From the NCBI GenBank assembly GCA_019828545.1, contig JACVRA010000179.1:1-64000 (forward strand): a stretch of 64,000 nt of DNA, written 5' to 3'. The position numbers and the translations under genes were made by a program. This document shows, one piece after another, positions 9,198-43,136 of the stretch (within the stretch, counting starts at the first letter, position 1; each line of letters opens with the position of its first letter). This stretch comes from Paracamarosporium sp. OC-R06-R3. Taxonomy: Eukaryota > Ascomycota > Dothideomycetes > Pleosporales > Didymosphaeriaceae. The notes beneath the pieces are model-generated. The model was not told where the DNA came from. It was given only the letters and a program-made list of their open reading frames with translations, and made no database searches.

Positions 9198-10944
9198 ATG
9201 ACCGAAAAGGATCTCGAAGCTAATGTTTTTGATGAACCTATGGCACCTGAGGCTGCGGTAGTACAGCCTCAGATTGCGTCAGATCTTCCCGCTACTTTAC
9301 CTCCTGCATCGAACACGCTCTCGAAACTTGATACCAACGCTTCGGCCTTGTATGATAGTCTTCCTATGTGGCGAAAATGCATGATCGTCTTCGTCACAAG
9401 TTGGGCCACACTTGCAGCTTGTTTCTCTTCGACTTCGTTGCTAAGCGCTGGTAGTGAGATTGCAACAGATCTGGGAGGAACAGAAGAAGCCGTTAGTCTG
9501 TCAACAGCGGGAGTCCTGCTTGCGTTGGGAAGCAGTCCATTAATTTGGAGCCCTATCGCTGCGGTAGGATGATTCACATCAATACGTATTGATCCAACAC
9601 ACTGACGCAGTATAGATCATCGGACGTCGACTCACGTACAATATCTGTCTCCTGGTCCTGTTCGGCTTCACCATCGGCGCCGCACTCGCCCCGAATATGC
9701 GCATCTTCATAGCAATGCGAGTAATCTCCGGTCTCCAAGGCTGCTATTTCCATGTATCGGGGCAGACTATCCTTGCTGAATACTTTCCGCCCGTTCAGCG
9801 TGGCACTGCTACAGGATTTTTCCTCGCAGGCACGGTGCTTGGCCCACCTCTTGGGCCTCTTGTTGCGGGCATCATGATGACATATTCAAGTTGGAGGAGC
9901 GTATTATGGCTACAAGTTGCGATGATTGGGCTTGCATTTGTACTTGCACTGGTGTTCGTACCACCTAGTAGACTGGACAAGCCAGGCACTTTTGCGCTGA
10001 ATACGAAGGGAATGGATGCTTTGAAGCAGTTCAATCCACTACCTGTGTTTCAACAAATGAGACATCGAGATATAATTTTCACAGTAAGTTTTATATATGC
10101 TTGAGCAGGGAAGGTCCCCGAAAGGACTGTGCTGACCCTGACAACAGCATCTGAGCTGCGGTTTCTTGAGTTGGTCGCAATACTCCATCCTCGCGTCCCC
10201 TCGACATGTTCTTAGCGAGCGTTTCGGGTTGACATCACCACTCTCTTCAGGCCTCTTTTATATTGCACCTGCGACCGGCTTCCTCGTTGGGACAGTAATC
10301 GGGGGACGCTATTCCGATATGACAGTACGGAAATTCATCAAGCTACGTGGTGAGCGGTTGCCTCAAGATCGCTTGAACAGTGGCATGTGGTCTTTCTTTC
10401 TCGTGATACCCGCAGCTTCGCTCATATACGGATGGGGATTGCAATACTGCAACAGCTGTACAGCAGTCAAAGGAGGCCTAGCGTTGCCAATCGTAACAGC
10501 CTTCCTCGCGGCTGCGGGATTACTTGCTGCATTTGCAAGCTTGAACACATATTGTGCTGGTACGTTGAACTCGCTGAACCATAATACAATAGGACTGATG
10601 ATTATCACAGAGGCGATACCTAAGAAGAGAAGGGAAGTGATAGCTGGAAAGTATCTTATACAGTACACATGTTCTGCGTGCGCGAGCGCTGGAACTGTTC
10701 CGCTAATGGAGGTGATCGGTATTGGTCCCACAGCGACGATAGGTACGATATAGATTACATTGGCTCCTCATACAAAATCTAACAAACGCTAGGTGCTGTC
10801 CTGTCTGTCATCGCTGGATGCCTGACATATGCAACGGCGCGACACAACGTTGAGAGCGATGAGAAAAAGGGAGTGAAGGAAGCGAATAGTTGGCTAAAAA
10901 GGAGGAAGCTGCTTCCAACAAGCAAGGTATTTCCAATTGCGTAG
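9198..10944 (+). CDS. MFS transporter (DHA-type drug/metabolite exporter)
   Basis: Four exons: 9198-9563, 9616-10083, 10148-10742 and 10793-10944, all phase-consistent, giving 526 aa. The product is a major facilitator with roughly 12 hydrophobic helices. Visible signatures are a conserved-loop remnant (IGRRLTYNICL), ISGLQGCYFHVSGQTI, and the antiporter-type motif C stretch GPPLGPLVAGIM followed by WRSVLWLQ. This pattern is typical of drug:H+ antiporter family 1 (FLR1/DTR1-like) exporters in fungi. The N-terminal 55 residues are polar and cytosolic. The gene ends 43 bp from the convergent regulator and lies 3.6 kb from the NRPS-like gene, which suggests export of, or self-protection from, the product of that enzyme. 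The substrate is unknown. Confidence 0.88.
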
Positions 10945-10987
10945 CTCTAATTATCGAAAATATTTGAATTGACTATTACTTCTATTT

Positions 10988-12968
10988 TTAGACGCTTGGG
11001 GGAGCTACCCAGTCCTCACCCCAGATTTCAGGCCAGTAAGGTGTTTGCAGTCCATAAAATGCCGGGTTGTCCAAGGCTTGCATATCCAAGTTCGTCTCGG
11101 CGAGGAAACCTTGGAATGATGGGTCGGCGAGCGCCATACCCGCAGTCATGCCCGAACTGGCGATTGCATTTATTGGCGGTTGCTGTACTTCTGATGGCGT
11201 GCTCAAAGTAGATTGTGGCAGAGCTCCGCTACGGGCGGCAGCCATGCTCTGTTTCATCGCATCAATGTGCTCGCAGAACTCTTTTGCCCCGAAACTGCCG
11301 CTTTGCGCTAGTTGTCTTAATAGCTCTACAGCATTGTCGAAGTTTTCCCCATCACTTTTACTTTGTGGGGTATGCAGTAGGCTAGAAACTGCCAGGATGG
11401 TAGCTGCAGAGAAGAGATATTGCGTATTGAAGTAATCGAATGTGGCAAAGGTGCCATGTATCCAAGCATCTGTGATGATTCGATAAGAATGTCGAGCACA
11501 CTGTGTACACGTCTCTGACAGCGTCCGGGCGCTTTCAGATAAACTTGTTGCAGGATTGGGAGCGGGGTCTATGTGAGATTGGGATTGCTGGTGAACGCGG
11601 AGCGCGTGGAGGAGGATTGGACGAGTAGCAAGAATCACACCCTATTGATGTAAGTAAGAACTTCAAGCAGCTCGTTATTAATATACCTGATTGAGCCGGA
11701 GATGTAGATAAACGATGTGATGTCGCTGTAGTGAAGAAGAGCCATCGTTCTTCAAATGAAACTTGGTCGGTAAAGTATCCATCCACCTTGTGAACTCCTT
11801 CAAGACGGACTGTACCCTCTGTGAGAAGGGACTATGGAATTTTCTTCTACCGTAGATTTCTCTCGTACATCTTGCCGCAACTCGGGATATTTCGATACTG
11901 CGCAGCTGATAATCGACATCGTCAAAGTCTTCATCTGTGTCGTCAATGCCGTCGCTACTTGGAGCATCAACAAAGATGTCATCATCAGCGATAGACACCG
12001 GAAGGCCGAGCTTAGATGCGCATGATCGATCCAGCACGTAAGCCGACCACCACAATCGTATGCGATGCTCCCTTGCTCGACGGTTATGGTATTGGTGCTC
12101 TGGGACATTTAACTGCATACCCATAACCAAGCCGTTTCGTACAGCAGAACTAGCGAGCACGTAGGCTGAATGGCGTCGGTTGAGAATAAATGAATACAGT
12201 GTCTGGATTGGTGACTTAGTCCATATTTTGTTCCCAAAATTAAGAAAAGACTTACGAGAAGGAGAGAAATTTCTACAGAATCAACTTGAGGACGTTCAGC
12301 GGGGATGCTGACCATCTTTCTTGACTGCACAAAGTAAATCAGCCCAGGGAACGTCGACTGTTGATCTGCACTCCGAGCAGAGTATGCCTCGCCCAAGGCA
12401 AAGAGAGCCAGGAGCTTAGATACTTTTAGCCTTTTCCCTTTGCCTTCTAGTTTAATGGCTTCTTCTAGGCTTTCGAGAACTTCAGTCTTGCGGACTATGT
12501 GATAGTAGCGACAAATAGTATTCAGGGCAACCTTGACTAAAAATCGCGCACGTGCTGGAGTCGGCCACTGACGATCAGTCTCCGAAAGTAGCGTCAATGG
12601 CTCATCTTTGATGAAGCTTGTTCTCGGTAGATGATTTGTGCAAACTGTAGCTACTGTCTGGCGGAATCTAGTGGAGAATGCGGCGTCAGAAGCTTCGCCC
12701 ACATGGATAGGTGACTCCAATGCAGATACGGAGTGGAACCTTTTGCGTGGACACGTGGTATTAGTAAAAAATATTCACCTTAAACTTGGGAAATACAGAC
12801 CATGCTCGCTCTTCTATTAATGGGTTCTGCGTTGTCTCTTGGTTTTCTGCACTCTGTTCAACCACGTTTGGCGGCGACGTAGGACGAGGAGGTTCTGGTG
12901 TGGACGCAGTGCTTGCTCTAACATTACTTCGAAGTAGTTCGTTCTCTCGCAAGAGATCTTCAACGTAT
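10988..12968 (-). CDS. Fungal-specific transcription factor (fungal_trans domain), 5' end unresolved
   Basis: Exons read on the minus strand: 12968-12779 (or to 12786), 12714 (or 12739)-12256, 12202-11687 and 11641-10988, about 605 aa in total. The first exon begins YVEDLLRENELL, the coiled-coil linker that normally follows a Zn2Cys6 cluster. Then come FSTRFRQT, the fungal_trans core with AVRNGLVMGMQLNVP and RIRLWWSAYVLDR, and an acidic loop DDTDEDFDDVD. The second intron has two alternative phase-consistent junctions, giving FPKF-K-SPIHVGE or FPKF-HSVSALESPIHVGE. No Zn2Cys6 cluster was found upstream, so the start codon is not assigned. A candidate small exon lies at 13466-13542 (see findings). 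Its position suggests it regulates the adjacent MFS and NRPS-like genes (inference). Confidence 0.78.
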
Positions 12969-14591
12969 CTGCAGGCATGAGATCGACATTTACTAATGAA
13001 TAAGCCATAGTGGGTGACATAAGAATCATCAAGTCCTTAAAGACGCCGCTTCAATAGGTGAAAAGCTTCGTAGCGTATTTGTACGAAGGTCTCTGCTGCC
13101 TGCCTTGCAAAGTATATTTGAAGACTAGAAGGTGTATGATGTATTTGAAAGAATTCCAGATACCTTAAGCACCCACCATGGATCATACAAACTTACTGTT
13201 GACTCAACTTCACCTTGCGATCTCGCGACGGGTAGACACACTCAGCAGGGGGGCTGGTTTCACCGCATCTTGAGCAAGGATGCCCTCCTGAACATTTCTG
13301 CCTCCGTGAATGACATCGCTCGCAGCTACCACGACATGTATCAGCATTTTACAACCAACGCGTTAGCATGTTAGGCGAGCTATATCATGCATCTGAGGTG
13401 AGACGGGCTGCAAGGTGTTCACCAATGCTTGTCGTTCTAATGGACTTACGCGATAGATCTCGTACTCTTTTTCTGGATCTTCGCATGATCCGACATCAAA
13501 AGGGGAGCGGACATAGGTGTGGGCATGTCGCACAATGTTGACTCAGACGGCCGAAGAGAAGCGAAGCGAAGCGTTCGGCGAAATCTTTGCAATGCCGATC
13601 GATGATGTCATCAAACCTCACGTGCCAGCGTTTTCGTACTAACCGTCGTATCGTCTCGCCCAATGTTTCTATAACTTGCGTCTGATTTTTTTATTTGCTT
13701 GACAAAAATTAGGCATAGGCCTGAGTATAGAGACTAGTAACGATAATTTCTGTAAGTTTGTACGACTCCTGGCTTTGTGCTGTGTTACACGTGGATACGT
13801 CACGCGTACCAAATAATCAACACGGCAACTGATTGACCATAAAACGCTCAATTTCATTGCGCGTTATCCCAAACATTTCTTACAGGATCGAGATGGATGT
13901 ATTTTTAAGGCCAGCTTAGTGTATGCCTTTCTATATTACCTGTGATATGCTCTCATTTGGCTGAAAGCTCCTTAGGTTGTGAATGCGTTTCCCTGATGAA
14001 GAACAGTCTATCAAGTTCTCACAACTCACGTCAGAAGACAGCACAGCAAGGCCTTGCAGACCCACAAATCCCATGGCCGCCGCATTCGGCACGCTAACAC
14101 CATACATGTCAATGCTCACGGCTCACGCAACGAATCTGAATCAGCAATCCCATGGTCGTCATGACCAGCACATGAAAGTGGCGTTATTCATCATACCTTT
14201 ACTCGCTCAGAATTTGTCCTTTTTAGATTTCAGAGATGGTAACGCTTCGTCGATCACTGCTATATGTGAAGGGTACACGGCATATGGAAATCGACATTGA
14301 GTTGTTTCGGTTAATCAAATATATTTGCAGTGCCCTTCGAGGCCAGTAGGACTTTCCAGCTGGGGAACCGACCATTCCGAAGAAAGTGTTCGTACCACAA
14401 CAGCGCGGTTTAGCCAAGCGCTTACTGGCGTTTGACTGTCGTTGGAACCGTCTAGTGCTAGTTCTGTAGTGGAATATGCGGGCGAACGGGCCTAAAAAGT
14501 AAGACCACATAATATGAAGTCCCCGCCGCGAGGGTATGCAATAGTATTTCCTTGAGCATTTATCTCCCGTTGACGTTCAATAACGCTTATA
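12969..14591. other. Region between regulator and NRPS-like gene
   Basis: About 1.6 kb. It holds the unresolved 5' end of the minus-strand regulator, a candidate coding exon at 13542-13466 (minus), and the promoter of the plus-strand NRPS-like gene. No other gene is supportable. The arrangement is divergent, so it may serve as a shared control region. Confidence 0.5.
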
Positions 14592-17500
14592 ATGACAATC
14601 ACAGACCCTTCACTCAGTTACGTGGTAGGAGGAGAGCTACCTGGACCGTACAGGAGTTGCATCCGACGTTTAGAAGATTGTGCTTCGAAATACCCTAATG
14701 AAGCTGCCTTGGTTTGCGCACATCAACCTTCAGATCTATACAACATTCGGAGCCTACCACTGGAAAGCCACGAATACAACAAATCGCCCTATCTTCGATG
14801 GACGTATCAGGGCTTTTACGCGATGGTGGAGCGGCTAGCTCGCTCCCTTGCTGCTACTGGCGTGGGTCCAGGCACACCTATCTTCACTTTTCTTCCTAAT
14901 GGAGCTGAATACCTCGTGGTCTTGTTTGCTTCCATGCGGCTAGGAAGCACAATGGTACCTATCAACATTCGAAACTTAGCCAACAAACAAGAGGTCACAC
15001 ACATGATAAGAACTGCGTTTATCGAATGTCCTTTAAATAATGCTGTCGTCCTTGCAGATTCGTTGGAGACGGCTGCTAAATTGGAAGAGATCGAGAGTCT
15101 TGCCAACGCCCAACGGATCCTCATTAGCAATGATGCATGGAAGCGATGGACTACATTGTCATCTGTTTTGCAGCTTTCGAAATCCGACCAGCCTCTTCCC
15201 GAACACCAGACACTTGAAAACAAAAACACAGACAGCATCATTTTATTCACAAGCGGCACAACAAGCTTACCAAAAGGCTGTCACTGGCACTACCCTTCCT
15301 TAGCTTACTTCGTCCATTGCCGAGATCAGCTAGGGGATAGATTCACAACAAAGAATGGAGATGCTTATATTGCATCTGCACCCAACAACCATGCCATGGG
15401 TTGCGTCCTTGCAGTCATGGCTCTCACTACAGGCGCCAGACAGGTCTATCCTTCAGCGACCTTTGACCCAGCGACGCTGCTAAGCGTTGCTCAGGCGGAG
15501 CGGTGTACTCATACTGTTGTCGTTCCCACTATGGTTCATGCGATAGTGTTCACAAAAGTGACCCGGAAGCTGCAGCTTGATTATTTGAGGACTGTGCTTC
15601 TAGGTGGTGCGGCAGTCACACCCGAAGTGCTCACCCTTTGTGAAACTGAGCTGGGTGCTGATGGGTGCGAGATTACCTTTGGAATGACGGAAGGACCTCT
15701 CGTCTTCTCCGGAAGAGGTTCCGTGATGGAACTGACGAATGCCGATGGAGAAACGACTTGTGGCACAGCTTTACCTGGGTCTAGAATCAAGATCTGCGCT
15801 CCAGGATCTCGTAAACCTCTTACTCGAGGCAAAGCTGGAGAGCTACATAGTACAGGACCGACAATATGCGCCGGTTACATCGGCATGGACAGCGAAGAAT
15901 ACTACATGGAAGATGGTTCTAGATGGTGTGCATCTGGAGATATGGCGCGCATTGACGAGCAAGGACGAGTTTTTATTGTGGGTCGTTTTAAGGAGATGAT
16001 TATCCGAGGCGGAGAAAATATCTCACCTGTAGCCATCGAAACAGTGATTGGCCAACAACTACCACATCTCAGGGACTTAACCGTACAGATTGTTGGAACC
16101 ACGGATAAAATCGCTGGTGAAGTACCAGTCGCCGTCGTTTCTCAGAAAGCTGATTCTGAAACGGTGAAAGAGATGAAGAACACTGTAGTGGTGAACATGG
16201 GTCGGATGTATGCTATCGATGATATCGTCTACTTAGGTGATCTTGGCCTGCAAGATTTCCCACGAACAATGGCGGGGAAAATACAAAAGACAAAGCTGAA
16301 AGAAATCATAAATAATTACCGCAAGCAAAACGAGGATAGGAATGGTTTTTCAAATGGGTTCACTGACTCACGTTTAACAAAAAAGATTACGTCCATTTGG
16401 GCACGTATTGTCGGAGTATCTCTTTCAGACGTCTCGTCAGAAACGTCTCTCGAAGACATGGGCGATAGTATCACGATGATGCGCGCAAAAGATAGGCTAT
16501 TCAAACTCACTGGTGTTGATCTCACAGTGCGAGAGATGCTAGATGCTCACACTCTAGGTGGGCTGCTTCGAATTTTGGAGAGCCGAATTTCATTGACAGC
16601 TTCGCACGACACTGCAATTTTCAAGCCCACGAACCACCCACCTACAATAGATTGCATGGCTCATACTTTGGAGGATGAAGATACCTTCAACGCTACCAAA
16701 GGTGTTATTACAAAAGCTATCATACCTTTTGGGCTGCAGTGGGAGGACGTTCGCGATGTGATGCCTGCGCTTGACTTTGAGGAGGTGGCAGCTAAGAAGG
16801 GCATCTTTTCTAGATTTACTCTGAAGGCCACCATGCTAGCAAGAAATACATCAGTAAAGGTACGTCTATCGTATGCATTTTGTAGACGATTTATTAACAC
16901 TCACACTTAGACATTAAGAGCGGCAGTGATGAAAGCTCTAGCAAATAACCCGATGCAGTCTTCTTTCATCGTCTGGAACGATACGGTGCTTGGTGATGAT
17001 GTTGCACTGCAATTCACTGTTGAGCAAAAAGCGGATTTCGTGGAAAAACTGATCGAAGACAAAGGAACCCTTAGGACGGTGGCTGATTTGAAGAAGCTTA
17101 CAATCGATATGATGCAGGAGCAAGGTGCAGAATATCCTGGTCCATTGTTTCGCGCTTGGATCGTTTACGTTGAAGAGGCGCAGTGTGCGGCTCTTGTTCA
17201 TAACGGTAAGAATACTTCTTCTAGACTACTTTGAGCTTTCCTGACTTTTTGTTAGTCGAACATACCGCGACTGACGCTACTTTCGGCTATTTGTTCTGGG
17301 AAGACATTGACCTCGCATTGAGTGGTGCTCCTCTGAAACCTCACGTGCCTTACAAAGTTTACTGCGATCACTTCTATAACATGCGCACCTCGCCTGCGGC
17401 GCGTGTGGCTACCAAATACCATGTGCAAAGGCTCAAAGATCTGCCAAAGCACAGAGAACACTTCTTCCCATCACTCGACAAGCCTATGCTTCTTGAAGAA

Positions 17501-18205
17501 GGCAAGCCCGATGGTTATGTTCATACCTTCTCTGCTAGCGGTCTGAACGCTCTCATCCGCCAATACCCACACCTTAAGCCATCGTTGGTCCTCAAAGCAG
17601 CCACTGCACTCTTTCTGCTCCACACCACTGATTATTCACACGCAATCTTTGCTCACTGGGAGTCAAGCCGCGACAAGTTTCCATTCACCACGAATTCTTC
17701 TTCCCTTCCTACCAACGTTAAAGCTAGTGACGTCGGTGGCCAACTCATCAATCCTGTCCTCAACCTCATTTCTCTCGACCCAAATGAGTCTAAGCTCGCG
17801 TTTCTGGAACGCCTTCAAGACGAGCAGGCTTTGCAGACTAAGCACGCTGCCGCGCCGTTGAAAGAGATCATGCGCAACATAGACTCTGAGACCGCAGAGC
17901 TGTTTCCAAAACTCAGCACGGAGTGCGTATTCAATTGGCTAGGCACAAATGTCAAGGGTGCAAATGCGTACGAAAACCTGGAATTTGTGGAGGCGGTTAA
18001 TCGGCGCGATGTGCATCGTTTTTATAATGGCGCCAGTTTGGTGCGCGACGGCAAGGGCAACGATTCGGTTTTGTTGCAGATTAAAGGAAGTGTTTTCAGT
18101 ATTACGGAAATGGAAGTTTTTGCGAAGAAGATTGAGAAGGTCGCATGCTGGCTGATGGAGGACTTGGATAAGTCCATTGAGACGTTCAGGGAGTCTTTGC
18201 AGTAG
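14592..18205 (+). CDS. NRPS-like enzyme: adenylation, carrier, condensation-like domains
   Basis: Three exons: 14592-16859, 16911-17205 and 17256-18205, all in phase, 1170 aa. The adenylation domain spans about residues 20-570, with the P-loop LFTSGTTSLPKG (about 217-228), FGMTEG (about 360), ASGDMARIDEQGRVFIVGRF and IRGGENISP (about 470) and the terminal lysine in MAGKIQK (about 560). A carrier domain follows, with DMGDSITMM and the phosphopantetheine serine at about S626. Residues about 690-1165 resemble a condensation/acyltransferase fold; the HHxxxDG site reads EHTATDA, with H857 and D861 kept. The enzyme should activate a carboxylic or amino acid as AMP ester, load it on the carrier and transfer it to an acceptor. 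The substrate is unknown. MFS and regulator genes beside it support a secondary-metabolite role. Confidence 0.88.
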
Positions 18206-19997: not shown

Positions 19998-21119
19998 ATG
20001 TATACCTCAACCCTTCTCACTTCTTTGGCGCTTGCGTCCTCTTCTCTCGCACAATACCAACTTCATTGGGATTATAGCGGCGCTAGCTTTTTTGACAACT
20101 TTCAATTCGTCAACGTAAGAACACACATTCCTGACACCAATGATTAACAACTTGTATTGACGATCCATTGCTATCCAGGCACCTGATACCAGCTTCACAC
20201 AAGGTTTCGCACAATACGTCGATCAAGACGAGGCCACTGCGTCAGGACTTGCGAAAATTGTAGACAACAAGGCATACATCGGCGTTGACACAAACAACAC
20301 GTACGACTTGAGCAGCACTGGACGAAACAGCGTACGTCTTCAGAGCTGGGGCTATTTCGATCAAGGCCTCCTCGTAGCAGATTTTGCCCACGTGCCAGTA
20401 GCGGGATGTGGACAGTGGCCGGCTTTGTACGATTTTCCTCCTTTTGCTTGTCCAGCCGCACGACTAATAACTTACAGCTGGGTCTATCGCGGTGAAACAG
20501 CCGAAGGCTACTCCGAGATCGATATCCTCGAGAACGTGGACAAGACGACTGCCAACACTCATTCTTTCTACACCTCCGAGCAATGCAGCGTCAACTTTGA
20601 CGTTGGAGACCCATTGAAGACGGACAACTGCCACTACGATCCCCAAGGGGCGGGCCAGCAGGGCTGCAGCTTCATGGCCGAGGAGGGAACCTTCAACCAA
20701 CCTTTCAATGATAACTACAAGATTATTGCTCTGCAGGTCGAGACTGATACCATGAGAATCTGGCACTTCAAGAAGGATGAGGTCCCGGCTGACCTGACTT
20801 CCGGCAACCCTAACCCTGATACCTGGAAGACACCAACCGTTTCCCTTTCGCCCAAGAGCTGCGACTTCCAAAAGGCATTCAGTCAGTTCCACATTGTAAG
20901 TGCATGGATCCAAAGGGATGTATGGTAAAGCAAGAATTAACAAAGATATAGATCATCAACATTACCTTCTGTGGTAGCTGGGCTGGCGGTGACGACTGGA
21001 ACGCTCAGTGTGCCGCAGAGACTGGTACTGACTGCAAGAACTGGGTTGCGAACAACCCGGATGACTTCAAGGATACCTACTTTGAGTTCAACTCTATTAA
21101 GCTTTACCAGAGGGCTTAA
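19998..21119 (+). CDS. Secreted GH16 endo-beta-glucanase
   Basis: Four exons: 19998-20114, 20179-20426, 20478-20895 and 20952-21119 (introns 64, 51, 51 and 56 nt), giving 316 aa. An N-terminal signal peptide is visible (STLLTSLALASSSLA). Removing the second intron restores GQWPAFWVYRG, the tryptophan-rich strand before the active site. The GH16 catalytic motif SEIDILE is at about residues 134-140, with E135 as nucleophile and E140 as acid/base by family precedent. The C-terminal part INITFCGSWAG and the paired cysteines match fungal mixed-linkage beta-1,3(4)-glucanase-like GH16 enzymes, which act on beta-glucans of plant or fungal walls. The unspliced frame also stays open through the 51-nt second intron, so that intron is easily missed in annotation. 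Confidence 0.9.
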
Positions 21120-41509: not shown

Positions 41510-43136
41510 TTATTTCATCGCCGGGGTAAGCGACACAAGGCACCCGTGCGCGCTCTTTGCTGTTAGAGCTACCTGTGCCTGATAGGGTTTCTCTTCTTCG
41601 CTCTTAATGCCACTGTACTGTTGCAGTATCCGTGCTATTATGTAAGAGGCTTCCATAGTTGCCTTTTGCTGTGCCAAGCACTGCCGAGGGCCAGCTCCAA
41701 AGGGCATGAATGTGAACGGCGGAGGGGAGTAGTTGTTCTCCCAGCGGGAGGGGCGGAATTCATCGGCATCAGAACCCCAAATTTTCGGATCACGGTGCAG
41801 CGTGGCGAAGCAAGTGTCGAACAAGGTACCGGCTGGCACAAACACTGGAGCAGAGCCATCAGAGCCTCCTCCAGCAGGTAGAGTAGTATCTTTCAAAGCA
41901 ACGCGATTATTTTGTGGAAAGACAGGGTATAAACGTAAAGCTGATCGCCAGGTTAGTAACCGCCTTGGGTAATCAAATCTATAAGTGGCAGGCCTACTTT
42001 CAGTGATGACATTCTGCAGAGATGTGATCCGCGGCAGCTGGTCAAAATCCAGTGGTTTGTCGCCCAATGCCAGGATTTCAGTTCGCACCTGGGTAAGCAC
42101 TGAGGGGTCTCGCGCCAAATTCCGAACGACGTGGCTGATTAGAGAAGCAGTTGTTTCGGTTGCTGCCATCATGGCTTGAATGATCTGGTTTCGCAGAACG
42201 ATCCTGTTACCTGTCTTTTGAGCCATGTTCAAAAGCAGAGTGCGTTGCTTAGTTTTGCCTTCTCCGTTTCCGGTGGAGTTAAAGTTTCTACGATATTCAA
42301 TGGCTCTGTCGACATACACATCCGCAAATTTATGAACTTTGTCACACGCCTTGATCCAGGCACCCTTGGGCATCAAGAAGCCTAGAGGTCCTAATGCGAT
42401 GCGCATTCCGCAGCCATTGAAGCCAGCCTGGAATGCATCCAAAAAACCTTCCGCATGGGATGGAGAAGTACCTGAAAGCATTCCAATGGACTCTCCGAAT
42501 AGAAAGAGCGTGTTCATATCAAGATACTAGAACGTATATGTAAGCATGGAGAGCGTTAGTGCGGTCAGCAAGACATACTAGCTTTAGTATGTAGGGCTGC
42601 AAATCGAATTTAGAGCCGTCCTTTGGGAGCTGACTTAGCATGATGCGCAGGTGCTCTTCAAGGGGACCGAAGTCAGAAATATTGGACCGGTGGAAACCGG
42701 GTTTCAGCAGGTCGTGGGAGGCCTTCCACTCAGAGCCATCGGTCGTAATGAATCCCACACCGCAGAACGGACTCATATTGTGTAGTCGCAGAGGCTGAAT
42801 GCCCCAGTCAGCAGTATTTCTGGAAAATATCGCCCTCAGGTTGTCTGGATGGACAGAGTATATAGCACGTGAACCGAAGTTTAGGGCTTCGAACGTGTGA
42901 CCGTACGTGTCGTATCGCCGCTGGTGCTCCGCCAGGAATTGGTTTTTGGTCATGGCATCTCCGGTTCTCAAGAATATGTCCAGACCAAATATGGGGTCTT
43001 TGTGTTTGTAGCGCGTTGGGGGCTGGCATCCATGCTGTCGGACCTTGTTTCGCAGCGTGTAGGTTAGGTAGAAACGGTAAGCAGCAAACGCGACGATAGA
43101 AGACGCTAACAGTGACAGCATTGACATAAAAGCCAT
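41510..43136 (-). CDS. Cytochrome P450, CYP52-like
   Basis: Minus-strand exons: 43136-42579, 42526-41998 and 41940-41510, all in phase, 505 aa. The N-terminal membrane anchor is LLASSIVAFAAYRFYL. The I-helix motif reads MMAATETTASL. Splicing out the 57-nt second intron creates ETLRLYP, the ExxR motif. The heme-binding loop is FGAGPRQCLAQQKA with the cysteine ligand, followed by EASYIIARILQ. These features match the CYP52 clan, whose members hydroxylate n-alkanes and fatty acids at the ER; the substrate here is not shown. The glycine usually two positions after the heme cysteine (CLG) is alanine (CLA). The gene is divergent from the short-chain dehydrogenase at 44300, a possible functional partner. 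Confidence 0.9.

What the first reader, a model, noticed from the sequence alone, without database searches (positions are those of the whole stretch)
9198..18205. Compact candidate secondary-metabolite cluster built on an A-T-C-like enzyme
An MFS exporter, a fungal_trans regulator and a 1170-aa adenylation-carrier-condensation-like enzyme sit together in 9 kb with no unrelated gene between them. This small set (activate, tether, transfer, export, regulate) could make an ester, amide or small acyl conjugate without a multimodular NRPS. I cannot match the enzyme to a characterised product.
Basis: partly seen in the sequence, partly recalled or inferred. Interest (0 to 1): 0.75.

Follow-up and report, generated by a model that had tools for sequence, protein, structure and literature searches.

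The report
Fungal acyl-conjugating enzyme beside exporter, regulator
A fungus carries an intact one-module enzyme that probably activates a small acid and joins it to another molecule, next to an exporter and a gene switch; enzymes of this type are known, the exporter and switch look like an older pair that occurs without it, and the product is unknown.

Summary
Three intact, spliced fungal genes fill 9198-18205: an MFS transporter (526 aa), a Zn2Cys6/Fungal_trans regulator (674 aa, minus strand) and a 1170-aa adenylation-thiolation-condensation (A-T-C) enzyme, with no further gene seen between them. The catalytic residues checked are present (A-domain Lys563, T-domain Ser626, C-domain His857 and Asp861). 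The A domain lacks the Asp of amino-acid-binding A domains. The enzyme most likely loads a non-amino carboxylic acid and transfers it to a hydroxyl, less likely an amine, as characterised fungal single-module enzymes do (AstA, AneB).

The cluster reading is only partly supported. Consecutive locus tags in Didymosphaeria variabile show the same MFS-regulator-enzyme order. But the MFS-regulator pair shares a contig in 13 of 19 species compared, and only for D. variabile is this enzyme listed on that contig. Karstenula and Paraphaeosphaeria minitans have close homologues of both partner genes, yet their named A-T-C hits correspond to a different gene of this genome. The pair looks older, the enzyme a patchy local neighbour. 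No scaffold-making gene was seen nearby, so acceptor and product are unknown. New member of a known kind; modest interest.

The parts
9198..10944 (+). MFS_1 transporter gene, 4 exons, 526 aa
   Evidence: Gene model; Pfam; N0V89_008004 82% over 100% of the query
10945..10987 (.). 43-bp tail-to-tail gap between transporter and regulator
   Evidence: Coordinates; length printed
10988..13526 (-). Zn2Cys6 / Fungal_trans transcription factor gene, 6 exons, 674 aa
   Evidence: Gene model; Pfam Zn_clus and Fungal_trans; P0241 86% over 100%, N0V89_008005 89% over 76%
13527..14591 (.). 1065-bp divergent region between regulator and enzyme; no excess of paired CGG triplets
14592..18205 (+). A-T-C single-module enzyme gene, exons 14592-16859, 16911-17205, 17256-18205, 1170 aa
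14592..16361 (+). Adenylation region, about residues 1-590; catalytic Lys563; the site equivalent to Asp235 is Ala268
   Evidence: Pfam AMP-binding 57-429; conservation; ANL fold in the model of orthologue P0001
16383..16571 (+). Thiolation (carrier) domain, residues 598-660, phosphopantetheine Ser626
   Evidence: Pfam PP-binding; Ser in 80 of 80 rows with a letter
16659..18202 (+). Condensation domain, about residues 690-1170, crossing both introns; His857 and Asp861 in EHTATDA
   Evidence: relatives carry PF00668

Best explanation
The 1170-aa protein is a stand-alone single-module A-T-C acyl-conjugating enzyme. The A domain adenylates a carboxylic acid that is probably not an alpha-amino acid (aryl or hydrophobic aliphatic). 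The acid is passed to the pantetheine arm on Ser626 of the T domain. His857 of the C domain, held by Asp861, acts as general base so that a hydroxyl (less likely an amine) of a free acceptor attacks the thioester and releases an ester (or amide). The acceptor is made elsewhere in the genome. The neighbouring MFS transporter and Zn2Cys6 regulator are an older co-inherited pair with a life of their own; in this lineage the enzyme gene lies beside them and may or may not use them. Shown: domain order, intact catalytic residues, absence of the amino-acid Asp, conserved order in D. variabile, the pair listed without this enzyme elsewhere. Inferred: acid class, ester product, free acceptor, independence of the pair's function.
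For: Domains. In an 81-row family alignment, A-domain Lys563, T Ser626, C His857 and C Asp861 are each identical in 80 of 80 rows with a letter. The site equivalent to Asp235 of amino-acid A domains is Ala268: Ala in 58 of 81 rows, Asp in none (site assigned by hand from the A4 motif). By single sequence the nearest solved structures are luciferases and acyl-CoA, 4-coumarate and aryl-acid ligases; by family profile LgrA (an NRPS) comes first, then 4-coumarate:CoA ligases. The AlphaFold model of the 75%-identical orthologue P0001 (mean pLDDT 85.3) matches the DhbF cross-module fragment 5u89 (E 1.9e-50, 1211 columns with gaps, TM by query 0.37) and LgrA. Published parallels: AstA, A-T-C, esterifies a drimane with benzoic or 4-hydroxybenzoic acid in vitro (PMC5024094, passages). 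AneB, A-T-C with QHxxxD, needs His794 and Asp798 but not the residue before the His (PMC10720950, parts 1, 3 and 4 of 6); here Glu856 precedes His857. For an older pair. For a separate paralogue in relatives.
Confidence: 0.6

Rival explanations
1. A true three-gene biosynthetic cluster: the regulator switches on the enzyme and the MFS exports its conjugate.
For: Tight packing and a divergent regulator-enzyme region; same order in D. variabile by consecutive locus tags; no other gene seen between.
Against: The MFS-regulator pair shares a contig in 13 of 19 species compared, with this enzyme listed on that contig only in D. variabile. Rhizodiscina has a 53% enzyme, but no Rhizodiscina MFS or regulator is among the listed hits (lists cut at 120 of 140 and 120 of 172). 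The divergent region has no excess of paired CGG triplets. General collinearity with D. variabile could not be excluded.
Confidence: 0.25
2. An in-trans loading module, as LpsB is for LpsA: the C domain passes the acid to an amino acid held on another NRPS.
For: LpsB is also described as A-T-C (PMC8902786, passage); the genome holds many other condensation domains (43 matches).
Against: Those 43 matches all lie on other contigs (the search scores only the best candidates and did not detect this enzyme's own C domain, so a partner of the same divergent kind could be missed). AstA and AneB need no partner.
Confidence: 0.12
3. A primary-metabolism enzyme (acyl-CoA ligase or alpha-aminoadipate reductase type).
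For: The A domain resembles acyl-CoA and 4-coumarate ligases.
Against: Carrier domain plus condensation domain instead of a reductase; patchy listing among relatives and several divergent paralogues.
Confidence: 0.03

Closest known systems
AstA of Aspergillus oryzae (astellolide pathway; PMC5024094, passages)
   Same: Single A-T-C protein; acts on an aryl carboxylic acid; makes an ester with a free acceptor
   Different: AstA has 1338 aa and sits in a terpenoid cluster with a cyclase, P450s and a dehydrogenase; here no scaffold gene was seen nearby. Sequence kinship not measured
AneB of Aspergillus aculeatus (aculenes; PMC10720950, parts 1, 3, 4 of 6)
   Same: A-T-C; essential His-x-x-x-Asp with a non-His residue before the His (Gln there, Glu here)
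   Different: AneB loads L-proline; this A domain lacks the Asp of amino-acid-binding A domains
Fum10 plus Fum14 (fumonisin tricarballylic esters; PMC8902786, passage)
   Same: Acid-activating A domain plus T-C protein making esters
   Different: Two separate proteins there, one polypeptide here
LpsB (ergot alkaloids; PMC8902786, passage)
   Same: A-T-C single module activating a carboxylic acid
   Different: LpsB hands the acid to another NRPS; no partner found on this contig
N0V89_008006 of Didymosphaeria variabile (P0001) and the NRPS-like protein of Paraconiothyrium brasiliense (P0002)
   Same: 75% identical over the full length; sister rows in the tree
   Different: No characterisation found; four hand-assigned A-pocket positions differ

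Membership tests
Fungal single-module A-T-C acyl-conjugating NRPS (AstA/AneB type) | A, T and C domains in that order in one polypeptide with no further module | tested here: met
   Pfam A and T; C by PF00668 in homologues, the HxxxD motif and the model of P0001
Fungal single-module A-T-C acyl-conjugating NRPS (AstA/AneB type) | Phosphopantetheine Ser in T | tested here: met
   Ser626; 80 of 80 rows with a letter
Fungal single-module A-T-C acyl-conjugating NRPS (AstA/AneB type) | C-domain His and Asp of HxxxD | tested here: met
   His857 and Asp861, 80 of 80 rows with a letter each
Fungal single-module A-T-C acyl-conjugating NRPS (AstA/AneB type) | Sequence kinship to AstA, AneB, ThmA or FlvI | not testable with these tools
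   Their sequences were not held
Fungal single-module A-T-C acyl-conjugating NRPS (AstA/AneB type) | Makes an ester from a free acceptor | not testable with these tools
   Needs an enzyme assay
Amino-acid-activating NRPS | Asp at the site equivalent to GrsA Asp235 | tested here: not met
   Ala268; no Asp in 81 rows (site assigned by hand, GrsA numbering recalled)
Alpha-aminoadipate / carboxylic acid reductase (A-T-R) | C-terminal NAD-binding reductase domain | tested here: not met
   No such Pfam match at E<=1; the whole model aligns best with A-T-C-containing NRPS fragments DhbF and LgrA
Functional gene cluster of all three genes | The three genes stay together in relatives | tested here: inconclusive
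   Together in D. variabile; the pair shares a contig in 13 of 19 species, with this enzyme listed on it only in D. variabile
Functional gene cluster of all three genes | Co-expression | not testable with these tools
   No expression data held

The most novel reading that the evidence does not exclude
In one group of Didymosphaeriaceae an old transporter-regulator pair was joined by a divergently transcribed A-T-C enzyme, giving a minimal conjugate-and-export unit without any scaffold gene. It would acylate a hydroxylated compound made elsewhere, perhaps a host or competitor molecule, so the unit would be a detoxification or tagging device and not a biosynthetic pathway.
Probability: 0.1. Interest if true: 0.55.

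Novelty: new member of a known kind. Interest (0 to 1): 0.3.

Why it matters
The enzyme adds an intact, testable member to the acyl-conjugating A-T-C enzymes, from a group of fungi for which the eight paper searches made (listings, with passages of some papers) showed no characterised member. The comparison also warns that a regulator and an exporter next to such an enzyme need not belong to it: here they look like a pair found in many fungi without it.

Tried and rejected
Primary-metabolism enzyme: rejected because of the T and C domains and the patchy listing. Amino-acid NRPS module: disfavoured because the Asp235 site is Ala. Shared Zn2Cys6 sites: the regulator-enzyme gap has 2 inverted, 2 everted and 4 direct CGG pairs against 2.39, 2.51 and 5.03 expected; upstream of the MFS 3, 0 and 3 against 1.41, 1.45 and 2.82, so no signal. 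Foreign island: GC of the enzyme exons 0.481 against 0.500 (MFS), 0.496 (regulator) and 0.477-0.571 for six other genes measured, so no signal. Wider cluster: one search lists 53 ORFs of at least 150 aa, 6 of them in the three genes; of the other 47 I scanned 30. Matches over Pfam's cut-off were BUD22, 5'-nucleotidase with a metallophosphatase domain, calpain, SIMPL, F-box-like, a P450 at 41510-42517 (23 kb away), GH28, a rhamnosidase C-terminal domain, FtsJ, and a DEAD/helicase protein (with ResIII); no PKS, terpene cyclase or NRPS. Genes were not spliced for this scan and 17 ORFs were not scanned, so small or many-exon genes can be missed. Plasmid search of the region: no match, uninformative for a fungus. 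NCBIfam on three homologues (P0001, P0121, P0242): the 25 shown of 105 models for the enzyme and the 25 shown of 44 for the MFS are all under their cut-offs, mostly acyl-CoA ligases and efflux MFS; none for the regulator. The VIA-align rows were filled by the A domain, so that list says nothing about the C domain. Nanangenine paper (PMC6880815, passages) and P. brasiliense genome paper (PMC10351199, passages): no characterised relative seen in those passages.
Full report
What is there. The window is bases 1-64000 of contig C65 of a 43.1-Mb assembly of 337 contigs. The nearest homologues are from Didymosphaeria, Paraconiothyrium, Paraphaeosphaeria, Karstenula and Bimuria, so the host is probably a fungus of the Didymosphaeriaceae (family placement recalled). 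Splicing gives three intact genes at exactly the reported place: MFS transporter 9198-10944, 526 aa; regulator 13526-10988 on the minus strand, 674 aa, with a complete Zn2Cys6 cluster once a short first exon is recognised; and the enzyme 14592-18205, 1170 aa. End-to-end homologues support each model.

Enzyme anatomy. Pfam finds AMP-binding at 57-429 and PP-binding at 598-660; the last ~480 residues have no Pfam hit in this copy, and this gene is not among the 43 Condensation-family matches found in its genome. The region is nevertheless read as a condensation domain. 34 of 120 listed homologues carry PF00668 (hand count), including P0003, whose C region is 57% identical. The motif EHTATDA keeps the catalytic His and Asp, each in 80 of 80 rows with a letter in an 81-row alignment (the window plus 80 homologues of at least 1000 aa that match the C region over more than 250 residues, out of 120 listed). 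The model of the orthologue P0001 (mean pLDDT 85.3, pTM 0.53) aligns over about 1200 columns, gaps included, with the DhbF cross-module fragment 5u89 and with LgrA; TM by query is only 0.31-0.39 for those matches. I take that to reflect different domain orientation; the C domain was not folded alone. The residue before the His is Glu here and in both close orthologues, His in 42 of 81 rows. In AneB this residue is Gln; the Q793A and Q793H variants stay active while H794A and D798A abolish the product (PMC10720950, part 4 of 6). So the change does not argue against activity.

Family history. In a tree of 36 of the 81 rows (named ones plus some unnamed) the window enzyme groups with D. variabile, P. 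brasiliense and Rhizodiscina at 100/100, apart from the enzymes of Bimuria, Karstenula, P. minitans, Kalmusia and Curvularia; four long branches elsewhere were flagged as unsure. The genome holds at least two further A-T-C proteins. One on C59 is 67-72% identical to the Bimuria, P. minitans and Karstenula proteins; the other, on C60, is 23-29% identical to the 12 queries tried. So the named A-T-C hits of those three species correspond to C59, and no counterpart of the window enzyme is listed for them. The listing shows the best 120 of 245 hits, many unnamed.

Is it a cluster? In D. variabile the MFS, regulator and enzyme are N0V89_008004, 008005 and 008006, all on a 3,813,450-base contig: same order. 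Against this, of 19 species that I found in both the MFS and regulator listings, 13 have both on a contig of the same length (table typed by hand). In Boeremia exigua and Diplodia seriata they are neighbours by tag number; in the two Didymella species the tags are 13 and 74 apart; for the other eight besides D. variabile only the shared contig is known. In 6 of 19 they were not on a contig of the same length, which may reflect different strains or a real separation. Of the 13, only D. variabile has this enzyme listed on that contig. For P. brasiliense, which has the enzyme, the place of its MFS and regulator could not be seen. The pair therefore looks like an older unit, and the enzyme a local neighbour. 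Promoter motifs gave no signal.

Surroundings. No PKS, NRPS, terpene cyclase or prenyltransferase was seen in the 30 of 47 further ORFs of at least 150 aa that were scanned. The next gene downstream reads like a secreted GH16-type glucanase (by eye; its ORF had no Pfam hit). A P450 lies 23 kb away beyond unrelated genes. If the enzyme conjugates, its acceptor probably comes from elsewhere.

Known kinds. AstA is an A-T-C protein shown in vitro to esterify a drimane with benzoic or 4-hydroxybenzoic acid (PMC5024094, passages); AneB, ThmA and FlvI do the like with amino acids (PMC10720950, parts 1, 3, 4 of 6); Fum10 and Fum14 split the job (PMC8902786, passages). The window enzyme works like these by anatomy. 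Direct kinship was not measured because their sequences were not held. No characterised product for its own subfamily was seen in the eight searches of the paper library, which holds open-licence papers only.

Verdict. The three-gene cluster is possible but not the best reading of the comparison.

Noticed in passing
L007:1390-8827 and G000:C60:7505-10296: A second A-T-C paralogue near the start of contig C60 lies beside ORFs with KR and ACP of a highly reducing PKS, a zinc dehydrogenase with an FSH1 hydrolase part, and a P450: a possible polyketide-conjugate cluster.
   Followed up: partly
G000:C59:34310-37840: Another A-T-C protein, 67-72% identical to proteins of Bimuria, Karstenula and Paraphaeosphaeria minitans.
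   Followed up: partly
window 19998-21119: Downstream neighbour reads like a secreted GH16-type glucanase (EIDILE motif, by eye); the ORF 20308-20928 alone has no Pfam hit.
   Followed up: no
window 9198-13526: The MFS and Zn2Cys6 genes share a contig in 13 of 19 species compared, an apparently old pair of unknown function.
   Followed up: partly
window 41510-42517: P450 ORF on the minus strand, 23 kb from the enzyme.
   Followed up: no
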